The notes under the pieces were generated by a model. That model made no database searches, was not told where the DNA came from, and worked only from the letters and a program-made list of their open reading frames with translations. A DNA stretch of 64,000 nt from Exobasidium rhododendri (lineage: Eukaryota > Basidiomycota > Exobasidiomycetes > Exobasidiales > Exobasidiaceae): assembly GCA_026210745.1 (NCBI GenBank), contig CP110632.1, positions 1,859,001 through 1,923,000 on the forward strand, read 5' to 3'. Below, one piece after another: positions 36,976-49,098 of the stretch. Both the position numbers and the translations under genes were made by a program. Each line of letters begins with the position of its first letter. Position 1 is the stretch's first letter.

Positions 36976-39270
36976 ATGGTATCTCAAACTGACTTGGTCA
37001 TACTGGGTGAGTCGAAGAGAGATGATGAGGACAGCCCGGAAATGTGAGGCCAGCGTGCTGAGACAAGTTCTCTTCATCTTGCGTAGGAGCCGGAGCAGTG
37101 CTCGCCTTCTTGTACCTTTACAAAGATGTCATCTTTTCAGGCAGTGCCAAAGCTGCCGCTGCTTCTTCCAAGCTGGGGAACGGAGCTGCGATTGGCAGCG
37201 CAGATGATGGCGCTTCCAATGATTTCGTGTCAAAGTTACAATCTCAAAAGAAGCGGATTGCCATCTTTTACGGCTCTCAGACTGGAACAGCAGAAGAGTA
37301 TGCCATCAAGATTGCAAAGGAGGCAAAAGCTCGCTTTGGAACGTCATCACTAGTATGTGATCCTGAAGAGTACGAATTTGAGAAGTTGGATGCCTTACCT
37401 GAGGATGCTGTTGCTGTATTTGTCATGGCCACTTACGGAGAAGGTGAGCCGACTGACAACGCGGTTGGCTTCATGGAGTTCATCGGCGACGAAGGGGTTT
37501 CCTTTACAAACGGAGATCGCTTGGACACACTCAAGTACGTCATTTTTGGTCTAGGAAACCGCACTTACGAACACTATAATTCTGTTGCAAGGAATCTGGA
37601 CAGTCGTCTAGAGGCGCTCGGAGCGAAGCGAATCGGCGAACGTGGAGAGGGTGACGACGACAAGAGCATGGAAGAAGACTACCTGTCCTGGAAGGATGGT
37701 ATGTTTACCGCTTTGGCAAAGGAAGGAGGATTCGAAGAAGGTGGTGGCGGCGAAGTTGAGGACTTCAAAGTGACCGAGCTTAGCGAACACTCGGATGACT
37801 CTAAGGTATATCGAGGTGAATTGAGTGCTCGTGCACTGCTAGGCACAAAGGGCATTCACGATGCAAAGAATCCCTACCCTGCAACAGTCAAGGTCGCAGA
37901 GGAACTTTTCAGTGTCAGTGGCGAGCGATCTTGCATCCATGTCGAATTTGACATTGAGGGAAGTGGTATTTCATATCAGCATGGAGACCACGTAGCTGTT
38001 TGGGCGAATAATCCGGAATCTGATGTGGATCGCATGTTGGCCGTTTTGGGATTGCTAGAGAAGCGAGATGGGATTATTGATGTAGAAAGTCTAGATCCCA
38101 CCCTAGCCAAAGTGCCCTTTCCCGTGCCAACGACGTATGAAGCCGTCTTTCGACACTATCTCGACATCTCTGCACATGCATCTCGTCAAGCTGTCGGCTC
38201 TCTTTCCAAGTATGCGCCGACTGAGGAAGCTCGTAAGGAATTAGAAAAGATTGGATCCGACAAGGAATATTTTACCGAAAAGGTCTCCTCCCGCTGTCTC
38301 AAGACGGCAGAGGTGTTGATGTTGGTAGCAGGCGATGATCTTAAAGGTGACCCAACGAAGGCGACAAAGTGGGACATTCCCTTTGATCGAATCTTGTCCA
38401 GTGTCAACCGATTAGGACCTCGATACTACTCCATCTCTTCTAGTCCGAAGTTACATCCAAAGACAATTCACGTTACTGCCGTCGTCTTGCGATACTTACC
38501 AAAGGAGGGAGATCAGCATGTTCATGGTCTAGCCACCAATTACCTGAGTCTTGTCAAGGCGCAACTCAACGGTGAAGGCCCTGACCCTCGATTTGACTCG
38601 CCAAAGTACAGTCTGGAGGGCCCTCGAGGTGCCTACACGAAGGACAACTTGATCCGTACACCTATTCATGTTCGCAGAAGTAACTTTCGATTGCCTACTT
38701 CACCCAAGATTCCTATCATCATGATTGGACCTGGAACCGGAGTTGCCCCCTTCCGATCTTTCATCCAGGAGAGAGTCGCATCTGCTCAAAAGAGCAAGGA
38801 AAAGAATGGGCCTGATGCCTTGGCAGACTGGGGTACTATTTATCTTTTCTATACTTCCAGAAAGAAGGATGAAGACTTCTTGTATGCCGAAGAGTGGCCA
38901 AAATATCAAGCAGAATTAGGTGATAAATTCAAGATGATAACGGGATTCAGTAGAGAGCAATATAAGCCAGGTGGTGGCAAGAAGTATGTTCAAGATTATA
39001 TCTTAGAGCACAAGAAGGAACTTGCGGAAGATATTCTGCAACGCAAGGGTGAGTCAGATACATTGTCCTAAAATTTATGCAGATAAGAGAGGCTGACGAC
39101 TTGCCGCCCCCTTCCTAGCCTACGTCTATGTCTGTGGTGCTACCGATATGAGTCACGATGTTGAGAAGGCGTTCATTCAAGTGTTGGGTAATGGCAGTGA
39201 AGAAGAGGGCAAGAAAGAAGTGAAGCTGCTCAAGGATCGTTCGAGATTCTTGCAGGATGTCTGGAGTTAG
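36976..39270 (+). CDS. NCP1: NADPH-cytochrome P450 reductase, three exons, 714 aa
   Basis: Exons 36976-37006, 37087-39048 and 39119-39270. The N-terminal membrane anchor (LVILGAGAVLAFLYLYKDVIF) is split by the first intron. The FMN flavodoxin domain follows (IAIFYGSQTGTAEEYA; MATYGEGEPTDNA; FGLGNRTYEHYN), then the FAD-binding region (RYYSISSSP), NADP-binding motifs (IMIGPGTGVAPFRSF; LFYTSRKKDEDFLY) and the terminal exon (AYVYVCGATDMSHDV). The C-terminus QDVWS has the expected penultimate tryptophan that stacks on FAD. It transfers electrons from NADPH to ER cytochromes P450, including those of sterol synthesis, and to heme oxygenase and squalene epoxidase. Length and motifs are complete. It ends 268 bp tail to tail from the dioxygenase gene. 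Confidence 0.97.
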
Positions 39271-39538
39271 ATCGTGCGCTCTCGTAGTAGATATCTCTCA
39301 TCATATTGCTCCCCTCCCTCCCCCTCCCCCCTCTATCACCATCATTGCTTGTCCTATCAATACATTACGCTTATTCGCACGTTCATACATCTTTGGCCAG
39401 CAGCCTTCATACGCTTTTGCATTCACGAGTACGTCTCGCTCAACCTCCTCGCGAGATAGTCACCCGTTGCTGGATTTTGGGAAGAAGTGTGTGTCAGACT
39501 GAAGGAACCAATTGTCTAGAGATGACAGTCTTGATGCA

Positions 39539-40744
39539 CTACTCACTGACTGCCTCGTACCTCTGCGGCTGTTGTTCACTGATGCAGGAAGGTAGACCTT
39601 GCACGACTTGCTTCTCGTTGGGGTTCATGAAATAGGCAATCGAGCTATTTGAAGAGGAAAGAAGAAGATGTTCAGCCCGGTCATGTCTGGCTTCTGCCGA
39701 TGTAGCTTCTCCCACTCACAATCTAGCCGGTGTCATGCCAGTCTCTGCAAGACCTTCAGGCGCTACCACTCGATGTAGAGTACTCTTGAGAGTGTCATTG
39801 CTCCATCTAGCCAACAAGTCGCCAACGTTGATGACGATGGTATCTTCAATCGGAGGTGCTGTAACAAAATCTTGCGATAATGGGTCTTGTACTTGAAGAC
39901 CACCAACGTTGTCTTGGAAAAGTAGCGTTAGAGAACCGTAATCTGAATGTGAACCAGCTCGAGATCCTTTCCCACCGTGCAGCAACGAAGAGGGTATGGA
40001 AGGATAGTGCAACAATCGTAACGTGTGCCATTCTTCATTGCATTTAGAGTCAAAAAAGTCCGACTTCAGATCTAATCCGATAGCAATCGATCTCAATACT
40101 TCTATGTGTAATCTGTCTGCTCTTGTTCTGAAGTCAAGCATGGTTTGACGAAATCCAGGTAATTCGTCTTGGGTAGGCCAGTCGTTCTTAAACTCTGCAT
40201 CGATCTCTCTGCCGATTTCTAGACTCTCTTTGTAATCGGGTGCTGATGCACGTAAAGCCGCAATTTCATTTTCATCTGTACTGTCAGTGACCCGCTCCCT
40301 CCCCTGCGCTACGTAGCCTCTGTTTGCTCTAGGATCTTTCCAAGCCAGTCTCTCTTTTATAGAAAACGGTAGTGCAAAGAATCGTTTGGAAGCTTCAAAG
40401 ACTGTGGATACCTCCTCTCGAGAAAGTCCATGATTCTTGAGGTAGATGAACCCACTTGTCTTGAATGCTTGTACGACTTGACGTGAGATCTCCTGTCTAG
40501 CGTCATCACTCGTGGAGGACGTTAGAAAGGGAGCAAAGTCGATGATTGGGATATTTGTGGTACCAGCAGTGGACAAGTTGGAAGAGGATGTCGGATCCGA
40601 TCGCTGTTGCGGTTGCATGGGCTGTTGTACACTGGAGTAAAATCGATGAGGCGCGGGTATGGCAGTACTATAGCGAAGTGACCGCAACAAACATGCACCG
40701 GTTGACTCTCTGCAGCGTGTCACTGCGACGGCATTGAAGATCAT
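39539..40744 (-). CDS. Thymine-7-hydroxylase-like Fe(II)/2-oxoglutarate dioxygenase
   Basis: Exons 40744-39720 and 39644-39539; 376 aa. An in-frame TTG upstream is ignored in favour of the first ATG. The fold is isopenicillin-N-synthase-like: start IPIIDFAPFL and FKTSGFIYLKNHGL; iron ligands His and Asp in GSHSDYGSLTLLFQD (about 265-267) and His in STLHRV (about 323); 2-oxoglutarate-binding Arg and Ser in RFSIAYF, formed exactly across the splice. Segments RANRGYVAQGRERVT, APDYKESLEIGRE and GDLLARWSNDTLKSTLHRV resemble fungal thymine 7-hydroxylase closely, as I recall that family. That enzyme oxidises thymine stepwise to 5-carboxyuracil. The first 60 or so residues are Arg/Ser-rich without acidic clusters, a likely mitochondrial presequence. 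The neighbouring iso-orotate decarboxylase supports the substrate call; a related dioxygenase with another substrate cannot be excluded. Confidence 0.82.
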
Positions 40745-40924
40745 CGAGGACAACTACTACAGCGCAGGGAGGGGATCTGGACGCCAAGAGATTAAGGTTG
40801 TTGGCGGGGGAGGGAAGGGCGAACGACTCAATGCACCGATAAGCTTTCTCGACGCTGATCCGTGCGCGCTTCCTGCCTGTCTCCCTTCCCTCCTAAACCC
40901 TCTTGGCCTCACCACCGGGCGCTG
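40745..40924. promoter_or_regulatory. 180-bp bidirectional promoter of dioxygenase and aldehyde dehydrogenase
   Basis: The two start codons are only 180 bp apart and face away from each other, so core promoters and control sites must be shared or interleaved. Co-regulation is inferred, not shown. Confidence 0.6.
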
Positions 40925-42872
40925 ATGTTGAGGACGACAAGAGCAGCATCAAGACGTCTGTTCAGCAGCATACCAGATGCCAGACCTTTCGTTGGCGGTG
41001 AATACCACAAAGCATCAAACGCAGAAAAGCTCGAGATCCATGAACCAGCGAGTGGAGAGCATCTATCTACCCTCTTCCTACCTACCTCTGCTCAGGTGAA
41101 TGCTGCTCTACATCAGTCTCATGAAGTCTTTGCAGATGGGCACGGCCCTTGGTCCTCTCCAAGTGCACTTCCTCTACGTTTCAACGCGCTGCTGAAGCTG
41201 GCCAACCTCTTACACGTACAAGCGCCTGTCTTAGCCGAGCTTGAAACAAGACAGACGGGAAGATGTATTCGAGAGATGAGAGCTCAATTGGCAAGAGTGG
41301 GCGAATGGTTTGAATACTTTGCAAGCCTCATTCGAGCTCAAGAAGATAGTCTGATCAAAGTGAAAGGGGAGATGAGAAATGAAGTGAGAAGACTCCCCCT
41401 TGGTGTAGTGGTGCAATGTACACCTTGGAATCACCCGTTGCTCATCGCTGTCAAGAAATTAGCGCCAGCTTTGGCGGCCGGTAATAGTGTGGTACTGAAA
41501 GGTTCGGAGCTGACTCCTCTTACTGTATTGGAACTAGCGGCTCTAGCAAAGGAGGCAGGTGTTCCAGATGGTGTGCTTCAGGTCTTGCCAGGCAAGGGAA
41601 GTACCACTGGAATGGAGCTCATCACTTCCCCTCTTGTTCGCAAGATAGACTTGACTGGATCGAGTGAGCAAGTCTTCAGATCTGACTTGCAACACCAGGC
41701 CCGACTGATTTTCCTCCTCTTTCCCTCTACTCCCCAGCTTTGACTGGCAGGACTATTGGCAAGATCGCAGGCGAGAATCTAGTACCATTTACAGCGGAGC
41801 TGGGCGGAAAGGTGCGTCGCAAGAGTGTGAAGTGGATTATATGCTACAGCACACCAGTTCACAGAAGCTTCAATGTCCCTCGCAGGCTCCTCTGATCGTT
41901 TTCGAGGATCAATCACTGGATTTGAGCGTAGCAGGTGCGCTCTTTGCTTCATTCATTGCATCGGGTCAAACTTGTGTATCCTCTACCAGAATCCTGATAC
42001 ACCACAGCATCTATAATGAATTCCTCAAGCGTTTCACTCAAAGAGCAAACGAGATCCAACATCAAATAGGCGATCGTGAGTGGAGCTGAAAACGCTACTA
42101 GTGAAGGAAGAGAGACGAGAGGGAGACTGACCTTGTCTGGCACTTATGATCAATGCAGCCCTGGACGTATCATCATCCATGGGTTCACTGATCTCTCCTG
42201 CCCATCTGAGCAAGGTTGACACCCTCGTACAAACGGCAAAGCAAGGCGACAATGGTCTCGTCTGCCTCAATGGTGGAAACACAATGAAGGGCAAGTCGTC
42301 GACTACTGGATATGACTTCAGTCACGGGTCCTTCTACCCACCTACCATCTTCTCTCTTGATCAAGCCGGCAATACACTCCAATCCGAAGCCAAGATGCGA
42401 AGCAGTGAGATTTGGAAGAAAGAAGTCTTCGGACCGGTCGTCGTATGCTGTCCTTTCAGGGATCAGGAGCACGCCATCGAGCTAGCAAACGATAGCGAAT
42501 ACAGTCTTGGCGCAAGTGTGTGGACGAAAGACGTGAGTGTCAAGTTTTTGCGATACGCCGTTCTGCTGTCGTGTTACAATGTTCTAATCGAGCACAAATT
42601 CGTCCTTGCAGCATGCACGGGCAGCACACTTGACAAGCAGACTAAAGTCTGGCGTCATCTGGGTCAATACTCATCATCGAAACGACCCGGCAAGTCCATG
42701 GGGCAGCCTGCAGACGAAGAACAACGCTTCCGGACTAGGAAAGGAGAATGGTCTCTCTGCTCTACATGCGTACTCTCAATTACAATCAGTAACGTACAAT
42801 CTCGCAAACGAGGAAACTAGATTACAAAATGAGGACTGGTTCAGGTTGAGTGGTAGCAGTCGGTATGGTTGA
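40925..42872 (+). CDS. NAD(P)-dependent aldehyde dehydrogenase, five exons, 545 aa
   Basis: Exons 40925-41663, 41738-41811, 41886-42075, 42159-42532 and 42612-42872; phases agree. The first 18 residues (MLRTTRAASRRLFSSIPD) are Arg/Ser-rich, a likely mitochondrial presequence. Landmarks: cofactor segment QCTPWNHPLLIAVKKLAPAL, LTGST with GRTIGKIAGE, general-base Glu in TAELGGKAPLIVF, nucleophile Cys in ASGQTCVSSTR, and KEVFGPVVV near the C-terminus. Fungal aldehyde dehydrogenases act on many aldehydes. Here the context suggests oxidation of 5-formyluracil to 5-carboxyuracil, between the adjacent hydroxylase and decarboxylase. This is inference: the hydroxylase can perform that step alone, and the gene could be a broad detoxification enzyme. 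It ends 36 bp from the decarboxylase stop. Confidence 0.93.
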
Positions 42873-42908
42873 TGTTCCCAGGTCAGCGTCTCCCCCTTTT
42901 CACCGCGG

Positions 42909-44336
42909 CTAGTCCCAAAACTTGAAGAGCTCTTTAGCGTTTCCGCCACGGATCTTGGCTCTGTCTTCTGCGTCAAATGAAGTCACCATGTTGATCGCGT
43001 CAAGGTTCTCAGTGACGCTCCTCCAGATTGGGTGTTCTGCACTCGACTCATCCGTCTCGGAGGATAGAGGCCGGAAGAATGGATGATCAGTCGAGAATCC
43101 GATGATGCGGTCGATTCCCCGTTTCAGCTCAGCAGCTTCACTTGTAGATCGATTCCTACCGCCTCCAAGCATTCCTACTCCGCCGCGTTTGTAACGCTCA
43201 CTCCTACCAATCATCTTTGCAACAAACTCTAATTCCTCCGATCCATAGCTTGCAGAGTCGTAATAAAATTTACCCATATAATAATATCGAGCGTCGTGTT
43301 GAAGGCGAGAAGCAACGTGAGGATCGTGGAGAATGCAAGACGACAGACGGGAGGACAAGACGGGTAGAGCACCTCCAGAATGAGCGAGGATAATTTTGAG
43401 CGAAGGGTAGCGATCGAATACTCCCGCCAGGATCAGTCGAGCAGCAGCCTGTAGCTCAGTATTAGGAAGGAGGAAGGGGTCAGCAAGCAGAAGTCCGATT
43501 ATGTGAATCGTATCACTTGACTCACCGATGCAGTCTCAAAGGGGAAGCCCAAAGCCAATGGAAGGACGTGGCCATTGTCCCTCGTGCCAAAGAGCCCATC
43601 TGCGTTTATAGAGTCGGATCCCACTCCATAATGAGGGTGCAGAAATAAAGGCTGACCAAGCTTTTCTGCACACGCCCAGACAGGATCGAGTTCAGGATCG
43701 TCCAGACCTTTGCCCTTACCTCTACTACCTATGATGGCTCCTTTGAGAAAGGCAGAGTCGGCTATACGTTCCAGGCTTGAGACTAGTTCAGCAGTTGGAA
43801 CACCTTCACTGAATGGCAGGATGCCAAAGGAACGAATCCGTAGAGATGGTGGTAACGCTGCTTTAAAATTCGATCGAGCATCACCTGCTGAAAACACTCC
43901 GGATGGATTATCTGTCGACTCAGACTCGCTAGCACTAGGTTGACACCACTCTTCCAAGTCTTCATTTGCTAATTTGGCAGCTTCAATAGCCTCGGAAGCG
44001 GGTAAGAAATCTAGCCATGGCTGTGAAGATAAGAGAAAAGGTAAGGAAAGGTTCCCCCTCTTTCTCGCTCGACTGTGTACCTCCCATCTTACTTACATTG
44101 GCTATTGAGATTATGCTCGCATCAATGCGGTGGCGATCCATGAAGTTTAGCTTGACGCTTCTGTCCCAATACTGAGGCCCGACCGGTCTTCCACCATCTA
44201 CCTCGTCAGGCAGGATAGCCAGCTTCTCGTTGCCATGTGAGCCGTGTATTCTTGGATTATGTGTTCGCTTCCGAAGAAGTTGAATGAGACGCGGCGTGTA
44301 GATGTGCGTGTGGACATCAATCAGAAGAGGTCGCAT
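42909..44336 (-). CDS. Iso-orotate (5-carboxyuracil) decarboxylase, ACMSD-type amidohydrolase fold
   Basis: Exons 44336-44097, 44020-43526 and 43448-42909; 424 aa. A metal site of the ACMSD/amidohydrolase-2 superfamily is visible: His9 and His11 in IDVHTHIYTPR, His in FLHPHYG (near 207), His in LAHSGGALP (near 268) and Asp in FSTDHPFF (near 364). Stretches DASIISIANPWLDFL, GKGLDDPELDPVW, RDNGHVLPLALGFPFET and ARLILAGVFDRYPSLK match the fungal iso-orotate decarboxylase pattern better than kynurenine-pathway ACMSD, as I recall both families. The reaction is 5-carboxyuracil to uracil plus CO2, last step of thymine salvage. It appears longer than relatives because of Ser/Glu-rich (about 107-140) and Gly/Arg-rich (about 320) insertions. 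There is no obvious targeting signal. Confidence 0.88.
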
Positions 44337-44490
44337 GGTGTAGTGATGATGTACCGGAGATGAAGGGGTGTGCGCCTCCTCTGTCCAAAGAGCTTAATTT
44401 TCGTGGAGAGCAAGGATGAAACAAGCAACACCTTCGCTCAAATAAACGCTAATGCTGATCTGTGCGAGAAAGATACACACGTGGGAAAGC
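44337..44490. promoter_or_regulatory. 154-bp bidirectional promoter of decarboxylase and Sir2 gene
   Basis: Head-to-head start codons leave 154 bp for both promoters. An in-frame upstream ATG at 44452 would shorten it further. No specific site is recognised. Confidence 0.55.
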
Positions 44491-46311
44491 ATGTCTTTTG
44501 GAGGTGATCCCGGAGGACGACGTACCTGTGCATATGCTGTCCATCGATGCCGTCCACGTACTATGCAGAGAGCAAATGGATCTGGCACTGAAGAGGACCA
44601 GGTAGATGGCGGCACATCACTGCATGCAGCTAGAGGAGACAGCCTTGACTGCGATTCAGACGAGCTCGAAGCGTTGGAGGATGCGGCAGAATTGGAAGGA
44701 GCAAGTGATGATGAGCTAGACAGGGTGGTTGAGGAGGCGACTCTACTGTATCCACCCGAAAAGGTAGCTGATCTGCTAGAAGACCTCAAGGAGGGCGGTC
44801 TTGTCAACTTCCTCCAACTTCATGTGGTTGGTAAAACAGAGACAAGCATCAAAGCTTTGTTCGTTGCCTTGGGCGTGCTCTTGCCAAAGGGGCTACGTGA
44901 AGGTAGCGTCACACCCGCGTTTCTAATCTCTATTCTCAAGACTGTTCTGGCCAGGCATCTGAGACAAAGGATTAAGTTGGAGCAATACAACACAGTGGAT
45001 GATGCAGTAAGACTGATAGGCCAATCGAAGCGAATCATAGTGCTCTCGGGAAGCGGCATCTCTACCTCCGTAGGTATTCCTGACTTTCGCTCAAAGGACG
45101 GCATATACGCTCAACTACAGCGTGAAGGCAAATACCACTTAGCTGATCCTCAAGAGATGTTCGATAAGGACTTTTTTCTTCATGACCCTTCATGCTTTTT
45201 CTCCTTTGCAAAGTCCATCTTCCCCTCCAACTTCATACCCTCTCCTTCTCATCGTTTCATCAAACTATTGGAAGATCGAAATATTCTACTGAGAAATTAT
45301 ACACAGAACATTGACACTCTGGAACAAGCAGCTGGAATCGAGAGAGTTCTCTATTGTCACGGTTCTTTTTCGCAAGCTCAATGCACCACAGTTGGATGTG
45401 GATATAAGGTGGCCGGATCTGTCATCAAACCGGATATCTTTGCGCAAAGAATACCATACTGCCCTCGATGCATGGAAGCCGAGGAGTGCAAGAAGATTGC
45501 AAAGAAGAAGAAGAAGTTGAGCGGGTCCAAACCGTCACAACGCTGGCGAGAGGAAGAAGATAGTGATGGTGACGATGATGATCGTTTGGCAGGATTGGGC
45601 GTCATGAAGCCTTGCATCACCTTCTTTGGTGAGAAGCTGTCTGATGAATTCGACCAAAATTTGCTACTGGACAGGAACGAGGTCGATCTGCTGATTGTAA
45701 TGGGTACTTCCCTCAAAGTTGCGCCAGTATCTGAGCTAGTTGGTCATATACCCCATCGTACACCGGTCATCTTGATCAACAAGACACCGGTCCTTCACAT
45801 GGGCACTCTGGACATCCAACTTCTCGGAGACGCAGATGTGGTTGTGGAATACATCTGCAATCAACTAAAATGGTCCTTGCCGTCACCTGAACCAAACAAG
45901 GAAGTGGTGGGTGGCCAGGCAGTTGCGGAAGAAATGAATGAGAGTGGCATCCCTGGTGAGAAGAAGGAGAACCATCCAAAGAGAGTCGGCGAAAGGTGAG
46001 TTACGATTGCAGCTTGCTTGGCGGCCATGCTTGTTGACGACTCTTCTACGTATTCTTTCAGCCACTATTGGTTGTTCCCAGGCGCAGAAGCAGACGGTCT
46101 CTCCGCCGTCTTAGAAGGCGAGGACGACGACAGTGATAGCAGCGGCAGCAATAGTAGCCTTGACGCGGACTCGGACAAGCGAGAGCAGCAAGAGCGGCCA
46201 CCACCGGCATCATTGAACGACAACGCCAAACGGGGTGTGAAAAGAGCAGGCGGCACAGACACCCTCGAGTCTCCTTCGGAAGAGTCACGCAAGCATCTTC
46301 GCCAAGGGTAG
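44491..46311 (+). CDS. SIR2: Sir2-family NAD-dependent deacetylase (sirtuin), two exons
   Basis: Exons 44491-45995 and 46062-46311; 584 aa (597 if ATG 44452 is used). The N-terminal 150 residues are acidic, with a conserved helical block (LYPPEKVADLLEDL, FLQLHVVGKTETSIKALFVA) as in class I Sir2/Hst1 proteins. Core: SGSGISTSVGIPDFRSKDG near 185, NYTQNIDTLEQAAGI, catalytic His in LYCHGSF near 289, zinc ligands C-x4-C near 297 and CPRC near 324, then FFGEKL and VMGTSLKVAPVSEL. The common GAGIS motif reads GSGIS here. The acidic/basic insertion after CPRC and the Asp/Ser-rich tail are disordered. By family it deacetylates histones and other nuclear proteins, consuming NAD. It is tail to tail with the nucleotidase gene (120 bp). 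Confidence 0.93.
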
Positions 46312-46431: not shown

Positions 46432-49098
46432 CTATGCTTTGGCCTTCCTCGTCCGTGCTACATTGACCATCCGACCATCTATCAGGGGGGCAATGACGGC
46501 CAAATCCCCTTCTAATTTGCGAAGCTCTTCCGCATCCTGTGGGCTGAGATCCAGGTGTCGACGGAAGAAGAGCTGACTGTCCGTCGAGACATCACCATTG
46601 TTGCCTTCATCGGCGACCCCCCTTGCATTTTTCACGTTTCTGCTGTCTCTGGGAGAATAGGTTGTTGATGACTGCGTGTTTATGTCGTTGCTCTTGTGTT
46701 CCTTGTCATCGGCGCTTGGTGTATTGCGTGACACTCGACTGCCACCTTTGAACAGCTTGGAAGCAGCGTCGTATTCACTGTGGTGCTCACTGGCCCCAGC
46801 ATGGATAGCGTCTCTTATACCTCCAGGACTCGAATCTATCACGACTCGAGAGCCAGGATCAAAGCTACTTGGGGTCGTGGAATGACTTCTCTTCCTTGCA
46901 TGCCCATTACTTACATCTTCCTGCTCTTGCTGTCCTTCGCACAGCGCATTGGCTCTCTCTACAGCTCGTCTCGTCTTGCTGGACAAGGTGCTGTATCTCC
47001 CCACCGCCCCCTTTCCACTCTCGTCCGTGTTGTCCCTGAACGCCTTGAGCCGCCAAATCAACGAGGCTCCCAAGAGATACTTACGAACCAAAGTGCTCAT
47101 CAAGGAGCCACTCTCATGGTCAACAATATCTTTGCCCCTCGAAAGGGCCTCATACCCGTCATGGCCAGCAGCCATGTATTCTCTTGTACAGACTCGATAT
47201 GTCTTGCCCATCTCCAGCTTATTGCCCTTGCGAATCTTTGGTCGATTAACATCGACAGAGTAACCCCCTTCCTCGCTGCGTTGGAAAGCGTAAGAGGTCT
47301 TCTCCTCTGCTTCAACTTCCGATTCTTTCTTCTTGGAACCATCAGGATGAAATAGATGAACGTCTTCAAGTAGGTGAACCTCTATCAGTCGTTTCCCAGA
47401 CGGCTTGCTTGAGTCCCAAAGAATAGAAAGACCGGCTACTTGCGGAAAGCGGCCCTCTTGGCTGGGATAAGCGCCGAATCCACTTTCGAGCGCATCCCAA
47501 ACGTCTTGACCTTTGAGCTCCTTGACCACAATCGAGTCCTCAAAAGGCATGATGCTAAGGACGTCCCTCAGAGCGATAGCTAGCACATTTGAAGATAAGA
47601 AGTGGTGTCAACCTAAGATATTCAGTGTACGATTGCCCCCTTCAATCACACTACTCACTGCCAGGACCGAATACAGCATCTCCTCGCAGACTTCCTCCAC
47701 AAATAAGAGTCATGTCGACTTGACGCTCACCTCCCGATCTGCTTTCCGCTAGATCGCCCTGTCGGTCTCTTTCTCGTATCGCATCTTCGTATGAATGCAT
47801 CAGAATGTCGGCTATAAGATTACCTGTCGCTGACTCCTCCGTCCTCACTTGCTCCATTCTACAGTCCAGAGGGGTCAGACTGAATGCTACTGCCTGTCCT
47901 GTCGCGTTATCTACTCTTTCGATCAGCTCGTCGATGTGCTCTTTGAGCTCAGGAAACGTCGGATCCGATGGCTTGGTAGAGTGTCTCTGCACCTTCACGC
48001 CCACTATTCTACGCCTTCTCACTTTCCCCTCCTCTTCTCTGCTGATCTCAAGTTTAATTTCGCTGAGATCGTGGAAATCTGTCCCACTCTTGACCAAAAG
48101 ACAATCGGTATCTTTTTCCAATCCGGGCATATCTGTATGCCATTCCTCTCCCTTGTACTCATCTACTCCTTTCCCGATGTAGTAAGTGTGATCATGACCT
48201 CCCAAGACAAGATCCACCCCATGCTCGTTGCTAGAAGCACTTTTTGTTGCTCCCAACTCGTTGGCTAGGTCAATGTCATTCGGGAGCCTGCAGTGGGTCA
48301 GAGCGATGACAATATCACACCTTTGTTCGCCTTTGGGATCTCGAAGCTCTTTAGAAAGTTTTCGAGCAACGGCCACCATGGATCGATACCGGAAAGTAGG
48401 TGGAAAGGAAGGCACGGTAGCAATCCAGTCTCTATGTACGGAGAAGGAGATGGAAGAGTGTGGCCAGCATTCAGCAGAGGGGATCAGAGAGCCCTACACC
48501 TACACTTCACTCACCTCTCTACCAAGCCAATACAGCCTATTCTGACTCCTTCTACTTCGCAAACCCACGATCGGAGAGTCCCCTCTACTTGCTTATCACT
48601 CTCCTCGATTTCATCCGACTTGCCAGCCTGGTCGTCACCTACATCGGCGATATTCGTAAAAGTCCAAGGGAAATTTGTCTGCTGCATCAGGGTTCGCAAG
48701 TGAGGGTATCCAAAGTCAAAGTCATGGTTTCCAAGACAAGCACAGTCTATCGAGCATGCATTCAGAACATCCACCATGTGTTCTCCTCTGGTAACACTGC
48801 TTTCAATACTAGGATTGAACACATCGCCCGAGAAGAGCACCAGTCCTTTCAATGGTCGCTCCCCTTCTTGAAAGGGACTCTGCTTACTGTCCCGATCTTG
48901 CGACTCCTCACCACCCTTTTTTGCTTGCTTGTCAGCCGATAGAAAATCAAGCGCTCGAGAAGATTCGCCCCAGGAAGTACGAATAGTAGAGATCTTGGCA
49001 GCGAATTGATCTGCGGTGATCGTGCCGCCCAGCGATCTAGATGTCTGCTTCACTCTGTAGACGTCATTGAAGTGCAGGATTGGAATCATCGTCGTCAT
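46432..49098 (-). CDS. 5'-nucleotidase/UshA-type metallophosphoesterase, three exons, 834 aa
   Basis: Exons 49098-48515, 48431-47659 and 47579-46432. The frame is open upstream of 49098, but ATG 49098 directly precedes the conserved IPILHFNDVYR. Calcineurin-like metal motifs: HFNDVYR, GDVFNPS, CLGNHDFDFG, ALTHCRLPND and LGGHDHTYY. The C-terminal substrate-specificity domain of 5'-nucleotidases follows (SATGNLIADILMHSYEDA, then CGGSLRGDAVFGPG, and VLSIMPFEDSIVVKELKG). No signal peptide is evident at this start, so it is probably intracellular. The last 250 residues are polar and disordered, longer than in bacterial UshA. By family it hydrolyses nucleoside 5'-monophosphates or related phosphoesters; the true substrate is unknown. 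Confidence 0.9.

What the first reader, a model, noticed from the sequence alone, without database searches (positions are those of the whole stretch)
39539..44336. Compact thymine-to-uracil salvage cluster: hydroxylase, aldehyde dehydrogenase, iso-orotate decarboxylase
Seen: a dioxygenase with thymine-7-hydroxylase-like blocks (RANRGY, KESLEIGRE, DLLARWSNDT), an aldehyde dehydrogenase, and an ACMSD-fold enzyme with iso-orotate decarboxylase-like blocks (HVLPLALGFP, GKGLDDP), adjacent with 180-bp head-to-head and 36-bp tail-to-tail spacing. Known: thymine 7-hydroxylase makes 5-hydroxymethyl-, 5-formyl- and 5-carboxyuracil, and iso-orotate decarboxylase yields uracil; both genes are described in fungi. 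Inferred: the three form a functional cluster, with the dehydrogenase taking over the 5-formyluracil step. I do not know of a description of this three-gene arrangement, but could not search.
Basis: partly seen in the sequence, partly recalled or inferred. Interest (0 to 1): 0.8.

Follow-up and report, generated by a model that had tools for sequence, protein, structure and literature searches.

The report
Fungal thymine-to-uracil gene cluster
Three neighbouring genes of a rhododendron-gall fungus look like a pathway that turns thymine into uracil; two of the enzymes are known kinds, and the third, an aldehyde dehydrogenase that other fungi often carry on the same stretch of DNA as the first enzyme, may be an unrecognised helper.

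Summary
The window is Exobasidium rhododendri. Three intact genes encode a dioxygenase, an aldehyde dehydrogenase (ALDH) and a decarboxylase, spaced 180 bp head-to-head and 36 bp tail-to-tail. One correction: the stop at 39539 lies in an intron; the true last exon (39469-39423) carries the C-terminal helix that thymine 7-hydroxylase (T7H) needs.

The dioxygenase keeps 19 of 20 named residues of Neurospora T7H. The decarboxylase keeps 11 of 11 of iso-orotate decarboxylase (IDCase), including the uracil-reading Arg and Asn; an ACMSD identity is disfavoured.

T7H-IDCase linkage is already on record for two ascomycetes. The new part is the ALDH. IDCase linkage is looser (14 of 29; 2 of 9 on short contigs). 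The compact trio could be seen only here.

Best reading: the ALDH oxidises 5-formyluracil released by T7H. This is inference: Neurospora T7H can do that step itself. Side result: two bacterial MAGs encode IDCase candidates, one near a T7H-like dioxygenase.

The parts
39720..40744 (-). Thymine 7-hydroxylase (T7H), exon 1 (the deposited protein P0241 starts at an internal Met)
39547..39644 (-). T7H exon 2
39423..39469 (-).
40745..40924 (.). 180-bp divergent intergenic region between T7H and ALDH start codons; possible shared promoter (one HGATAR site, not more than chance: 501 of 2000 shuffles reach it)
40925..41663 (+). Aldehyde dehydrogenase exon 1
41738..41811 (+). ALDH exon 2
41886..42075 (+). 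ALDH exon 3 (holds the GQTC block)
42159..42532 (+). ALDH exon 4
42612..42872 (+). ALDH exon 5 and stop
42909..43448 (-). Iso-orotate decarboxylase (IDCase), exon 3 and stop
43526..44020 (-). IDCase exon 2
44097..44336 (-). IDCase exon 1

Best explanation
The locus encodes the thymine-to-uracil part of the fungal thymidine-salvage pathway. T7H (Fe(II)/2-oxoglutarate dioxygenase) oxidises the methyl group of free thymine to 5-hydroxymethyl-, 5-formyl- and 5-carboxyuracil. IDCase removes CO2 from 5-carboxyuracil to give uracil, for uracil phosphoribosyltransferase or uracil catabolism. The ALDH most likely oxidises 5-formyluracil that T7H lets go, with NAD(P)+, sparing one 2-oxoglutarate/O2 turnover and removing a reactive aldehyde. 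Shown here: gene models, active-site residues, family placement, linkage by contig. Inferred from characterised relatives: the T7H and IDCase reactions. Inferred from linkage and chemistry alone: the ALDH substrate.
For: T7H: 317 bits to N. crassa thymine dioxygenase, next different PDB enzyme 135; 49% identity over 319 aligned residues (155) and 19 of 20 functional residues named in PMC4787775 identical, against 11 of 20 for ucsF, the next PDB enzyme. IDCase: 198 bits, ACMSD 71; 11 of 11 active-site residues including Arg68 and Asn98. The genome holds no second close T7H (next place 36%). Other ALDH pieces of the genome are at most 38% identical, save short pieces at 42% (85 residues) and 40% (120 residues). 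T7H-ALDH same contig in 18 of 24 other species, 1.1 expected; both contigs 600 kb or less 9 of 13, 0.2 expected (genome sizes assumed). T7H P0252 and ALDH P0124 both list a contig of 5,793 bp. NcT7H releases its product after each oxidation and has its highest Km for 5-formyluracil, 253 uM. Uracil phosphoribosyltransferase, IU nucleoside hydrolase and PF07958 families have matches elsewhere in the genome.
Against: NcT7H converts 5-formyluracil alone, so an ALDH is not required. IDCase linkage is weak on short contigs: 2 of 9 with T7H, 3 of 6 with ALDH. Of 10 species with all three listed, 5 have all on one contig, 3 have IDCase apart and 2 have T7H apart (in Pseudozyma the T7H row is an SY62 record and may be another strain). 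Linkage was judged from equal contig lengths, not from gene order, and many contigs are 1-3 Mb. All 25 NCBIfam models shown (of 43 matched) score the ALDH below their cut-offs, so its substrate is not told by family. No ALDH was found among nine genes scanned around the bacterial IDCase of L029, and none was seen by eye among the reading frames listed for L028.
Confidence: 0.6

Rival explanations
1. T7H and IDCase work as known, but the ALDH is a neighbour with another job (for example a general or betaine/aminoaldehyde-type dehydrogenase) whose proximity reflects old basidiomycete synteny.
For: T7H alone completes the oxidation in N. crassa. Many same-contig cases are on contigs of 1-3 Mb. 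Printed locus tags are often tens of genes apart: T7H/ALDH Agrocybe 5171/5117; ALDH/IDCase Stygiomarasmius 1835/1862, Sporobolomyces 4052/4086. The ALDH subfamily also occurs in ascomycetes, where linkage could not be examined.
Against: With both contigs at 600 kb or less T7H-ALDH linkage stays at 9 of 13 with 0.2 expected; a 5.8-kb contig length is shared by both genes; Gymnopilus tags are 6 apart (525/531); here the genes are divergent with 180 bp between start codons.
Confidence: 0.33
2. Kynurenine-type cluster: the amidohydrolase is ACMSD and the ALDH is aminomuconate semialdehyde dehydrogenase.
For: Some deposited relatives are named ACMSD (P0001, P0005, P0060, P0080, P0097; 5 of 120 listed, names cut short). 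ACMSD followed by an ALDH is a real pathway order (recalled).
Against: IDCase outscores ACMSD 198 to 71 bits. Arg68 and Asn98, described as the ring-binding residues whose places are empty or different in LigW and gamma-RSD, are kept here and in 120 of 120 listed relatives. The window protein groups with crystallised IDCases against three PF04909 paralogues of its own genome (no characterised ACMSD row was in that tree). 3-hydroxyanthranilate dioxygenase lies on another contig.
Confidence: 0.03
3. The dioxygenase is not T7H but a T7H-like enzyme on another heterocycle, as HxnY is in nicotinate breakdown of A. nidulans.
For: HxnY also keeps the cosubstrate, iron and ring-stacking residues of T7H (PMC9304392 passage), so those residues are not unique to T7H.
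Against: 49% identity to NcT7H over the catalytic part; Asn87, Glu122, Asn294 and the C-terminal Tyr324/Arg328 are all kept; adjacency to an IDCase, a family that acted only on 5-carboxypyrimidines among the substrates described in PMC6305744. HxnY itself was not aligned.
Confidence: 0.04

Closest known systems
[quoted passage not shown] 2005, as cited in PMC6305744)
   Same: Same two enzyme families next to each other, same pathway
   Different: No ALDH is mentioned in that passage; here the ALDH sits between the two and the genome is a basidiomycete. The 2005 paper itself was not read.
N. crassa thymine-7-hydroxylase (PDB 5C3O-5C3S, PMC4787775)
   Same: 19 of 20 named residues, Fe/2OG fold, C-terminal helix
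   Different: One conservative change (Thr215 to Ser); N-terminal extension of about 50 residues in the longest model; activity not assayed here
Cordyceps militaris and Metarhizium anisopliae IDCase (PDB 4HK5-7, 4HJW, 4LAK-O)
   Same: 11 of 11 active-site residues
   Different: About 41% identity over 321 aligned residues to the C. militaris enzyme; longer loops; FSTDHPFF in place of FGTDHPFF with one extra residue before it
Betaine/aminoaldehyde-type ALDHs (PDB 4O6R, 2WME; NCBIfam TIGR01804)
   Same: Same superfamily, about 300 bits to the best PDB chains, GQTC and ELGGK blocks
   Different: Below the curated cut-offs (best 390 against 668.6 bits); groups in a separate fungal subfamily often on one contig with T7H

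Membership tests
Thymine 7-hydroxylase | HxD..H iron ligands and 2OG-binding Arg/Ser/Tyr | tested here: met
   His214, Asp216, His271, Arg190, Tyr194, Arg286, Ser288 equivalents identical
Thymine 7-hydroxylase | Thymine-binding residues Phe292, Tyr217, Asn87, Glu122, Asn294 | tested here: met
   All identical; ucsF control keeps none of these five
Thymine 7-hydroxylase | C-terminal helix with Tyr324 and Arg328, needed for activity | tested here: met
   Present once exon 3 is added
Thymine 7-hydroxylase | Placement with NcT7H in a tree | tested here: inconclusive
   Groups with NcT7H against one outgroup only, ucsF, on long branches; bit scores 317 against 135
Thymine 7-hydroxylase | Oxidation of free thymine to 5-carboxyuracil | not testable with these tools
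   needs enzyme assay
Iso-orotate decarboxylase | Metal ligands and catalytic Asp (His12, His14, His195, Asp323) | tested here: met
Iso-orotate decarboxylase | Ring-binding Arg68 and Asn98, Phe222/326/327, His251, Arg262 | tested here: met
   All identical; Arg and Asn in 120 of 120 listed relatives
Iso-orotate decarboxylase | Clade with crystallised IDCases rather than other PF04909 proteins | tested here: met
   against three own-genome paralogues only; no characterised ACMSD sequence was in the tree
Iso-orotate decarboxylase | Decarboxylation of 5-carboxyuracil | not testable with these tools
   needs enzyme assay
ACMSD / aminomuconate semialdehyde dehydrogenase pair | Closest relatives are kynurenine-pathway enzymes | tested here: not met
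   PDB ranking and residues
Aldehyde dehydrogenase superfamily | Aldedh domain with catalytic Cys and Glu blocks (motifs recalled) | tested here: met
   PF00171 417 bits over 31-519; ELGGK and GQTC in the translation
A dedicated 5-formyluracil dehydrogenase | Activity on 5-formyluracil | not testable with these tools
   only linkage supports it

The most novel reading that the evidence does not exclude
Fungi have a dedicated NAD(P)-dependent 5-formyluracil dehydrogenase, of old origin in Basidiomycota, genetically paired with T7H. Thymine salvage would then be a three-enzyme pathway in which the dioxygenase mainly makes 5-hydroxymethyl- and 5-formyluracil and the dehydrogenase commits them to 5-carboxyuracil.
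Probability: 0.45. Interest if true: 0.55.

Novelty: new variant of a known kind. Interest (0 to 1): 0.42.

Why it matters
T7H is a free-base model for TET enzymes, and IDCase a model for a sought 5-carboxycytosine decarboxylase. A partner dehydrogenase for the formyl step would add a route not raised in the sections of those papers that I read, and gives a named gene to assay. It would also give a function to a widespread fungal ALDH subfamily now named only in general terms, and would correct some fungal genes named ACMSD.

Tried and rejected
ACMSD/kynurenine reading: disfavoured. Dioxygenase ending at 39539, and an alternative 31-nt intron ending at 39460: rejected after the C-terminal exon was found. 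Mitochondrial co-targeting of T7H and ALDH: a crude N-terminal charge count did not separate the families (78 of 120 T7H, 26 of 120 ALDH, 93 of 120 IDCase rows pass; the window's own ALDH does not), so I make no claim. Nitrogen-control GATA site in the shared promoter: one site, reached by 501 of 2000 shuffles. Viral-contig scans for T7H and for the bacterial IDCase gave no relative. The first ALDH tree used wrongly picked reading frames for the genome's other ALDHs; it was redone with 45 rows. In one search the row own_L004 is a spurious 62-aa frame and is ignored. Trees used parts of the lists: T7H 34 of 120 hits, IDCase 30 of 120, ALDH 35 of 120.

Limits of the linkage count: only the best 120 rows of each search were listed, and only about 8000 candidates per search were scored; species in more than one list were picked by eye; genome sizes of 30 Mb (17 Mb for smuts and red yeasts) are assumed. 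Of 46 equal-length pairs between lists, 45 are of one species and one is unnamed, which supports the proxy.

Literature hits not opened: searches (PMC6114979; PMC8886221, Leishmania proteomics) and three of the four (PMC4666366, PMC7042692, PMC10607815) were seen as listings only.
Full report
What is there. The window lies in Exobasidium rhododendri: its ALDH and dioxygenase match deposited proteins CBS101457_005768 and _005767 at 100%, on a contig of 4,981,867 bp, the length of G000 contig C3 that holds the window. Three intron-containing genes without frame defects lie at 39423-44336: a dioxygenase (-), an aldehyde dehydrogenase (+) and an amidohydrolase-fold decarboxylase (-). The dioxygenase 3' end was not: the stop at 39539 lies in intron 2, and the last exon is 39469-39423.

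Identity of the dioxygenase. Its best PDB match is N. crassa thymine dioxygenase (317 bits; next different enzyme 135), 49% identical over 319 aligned residues. Of 20 residues that PMC4787775 (outline and sections 3, 11, 13, 15 read) assigns to iron, 2-oxoglutarate, thymine or the C-terminal helix network, 19 are identical and Thr215 is Ser. The next PDB enzyme, ucsF, keeps 11 of 20 and none of the five residues Asn87, Glu122, Tyr217, Phe292, Asn294. Among the 120 listed relatives each of the 20 positions keeps the window's residue in 108 or more. The helix residues Tyr324 and Arg328 appear only with the corrected exon. No second close copy is in the genome; the next protein is 36% identical. 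Against exclusivity: HxnY of A. nidulans, in nicotinate breakdown, is also T7H-like (PMC9304392, passages only).

Identity of the decarboxylase. Best PDB matches are fungal uracil-5-carboxylate decarboxylases (198 bits; ACMSD 71). The 11 residues taken from PMC6305744 (outline, introduction, section 8 and part 1 of the results read) are all kept, including Arg68 and Asn98, which bind the uracil ring. In a tree it falls with Ustilaginomycotina proteins, in one group with the crystallised IDCases and apart from three PF04909 paralogues of its own genome; characterised ACMSDs were not in that tree. The name ACMSD carried by 5 of the 120 listed relatives is therefore probably wrong. 3-hydroxyanthranilate dioxygenase of the kynurenine pathway lies on contig C2.

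The dehydrogenase. It is a full ALDH (PF00171, 417 bits) with its catalytic blocks (motifs recalled). It scores below the cut-offs of all 25 NCBIfam models shown (of 43 matched). Other ALDH pieces of the genome are at most 38% identical, save short pieces at 42% (85 residues) and 40% (120 residues). Its nearest relatives form a fungal subfamily in Basidiomycota and Ascomycota whose tree broadly follows taxonomy, with two exceptions: the chytrid noted below, and red yeasts beside the ascomycetes.

Linkage. The protein search reports the longest contig for each hit, and equal lengths serve as a proxy for the same contig. T7H and ALDH match in 19 of 25 species found in both lists, T7H and IDCase in 14 of 29, ALDH and IDCase in 12 of 17. 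Without the window's species T7H-ALDH is 18 of 24 against 1.1 expected. With both contigs at 600 kb or less the counts are T7H-ALDH 9 of 13 (0.2 expected), T7H-IDCase 2 of 9 (0.15 expected) and ALDH-IDCase 3 of 6 (0.11 expected) (genome sizes assumed). One metagenome pair, T7H P0252 and ALDH P0124, shares a contig length of 5,793 bp. Printed locus tags differ by 1 (Exobasidium T7H/ALDH), 6 (Gymnopilus T7H/ALDH), 54 (Agrocybe T7H/ALDH), 20 (Tricholomella T7H/IDCase), 27 (Stygiomarasmius ALDH/IDCase) and 34 (Sporobolomyces ALDH/IDCase). So T7H-ALDH is the more tightly conserved pair and IDCase is often on the same large contig; the compact trio could be seen in this genome only, because gene order elsewhere was not readable. 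Of 10 species with all three listed, 5 have all three on one contig, 3 have IDCase apart and 2 have T7H apart.

Function. T7H makes 5-hydroxymethyl-, 5-formyl- and 5-carboxyuracil and IDCase makes uracil. NcT7H acts on 5-formyluracil itself (kcat/Km 0.181 per min per uM, thymine 0.177) but with the highest Km, 253 uM, and releases its product after each step. An ALDH that captures released 5-formyluracil is chemically sensible and fits the linkage; it is not shown. Downstream, the genome has matches to uracil phosphoribosyltransferase, IU nucleoside hydrolase and PF07958 (recalled as URC4 of uracil catabolism), so uracil could be salvaged or degraded.

What is known. T7H and IDCase are characterised enzymes, and their neighbouring genes in N. 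crassa and A. nidulans are on record. My searches found no paper in the library that joins the ALDH to them; a few of their hits were seen as listings only. Most subscription papers are not held, and older enzymology was not checked.

Side results. A scan of bacterial and archaeal genomes with an IDCase alignment gave 6 loci. Two, from Acetobacteraceae/Rhodopila MAGs (L028, L029), encode proteins 41 and 43% identical to Pseudozyma P0001 in the best segment, with all 11 IDCase residues; the other four are 27-32% and were not studied. The L029 protein scores 249 bits to IDCase against 107 to ACMSD. In L029 it follows genes of an NMT1-type ABC transporter and precedes a flavin oxidoreductase, a ureidoglycolate lyase-like protein and a dioxygenase with 17 of 20 T7H residues. 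That dioxygenase scores higher to two other PDB oxygenases than to T7H (259 and 220 against 162 bits). The gene is rare: at E 1e-60, 1 of 299 genomes drawn from that family has it, namely the query genome. The chytrid Cladochytrium replicatum groups with Ustilaginales in all three family trees (supports 100, 94 and 98), which suggests transfer or a mixed assembly.

Noticed in passing
L029:2253-10974 and L028:1382-4389: Putative bacterial IDCase in two Acetobacteraceae/Rhodopila MAGs beside a flavin oxidoreductase and a ureidoglycolate lyase-like gene; L029 also has an NMT1-type ABC transporter and a T7H-like dioxygenase (17 of 20 residues). Looks like a bacterial pyrimidine operon.
   Followed up: partly
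P0007, P0122, P0248 (Cladochytrium replicatum): A chytrid's T7H, ALDH and IDCase group with smut fungi in three trees (T7H and ALDH share a contig length); horizontal transfer or contamination.
   Followed up: partly
window 46435-47607 (-): 5'-nucleotidase C-terminal domain two genes from IDCase; could feed nucleoside salvage, linkage elsewhere not tested.
   Followed up: no
window 44446-45996 (+) and 37062-39071 (+): Flanking genes: Sir2-family protein and a flavodoxin/FAD/NAD reductase resembling NADPH-cytochrome P450 reductase; apparently housekeeping, bounding the cluster.
   Followed up: partly
G000:C1:7042856-7071643: Two PF04909 paralogues lie within about 30 kb of a Transp_cyt_pur permease gene.
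   Followed up: no
window 42909-43448 (-): IDCase reads GFSTDHPFF where the 13 aligned relatives read FGTD, with one residue more: Gly to Ser two residues before the catalytic Asp. The deposited E. rhododendri IDCase protein was not among the 120 listed hits.
   Followed up: no
P0001, P0005, P0060, P0080, P0097: Five probable IDCases carry an ACMSD name, many others 'amidohydrolase 2' or hypothetical; likely misannotation.
   Followed up: partly
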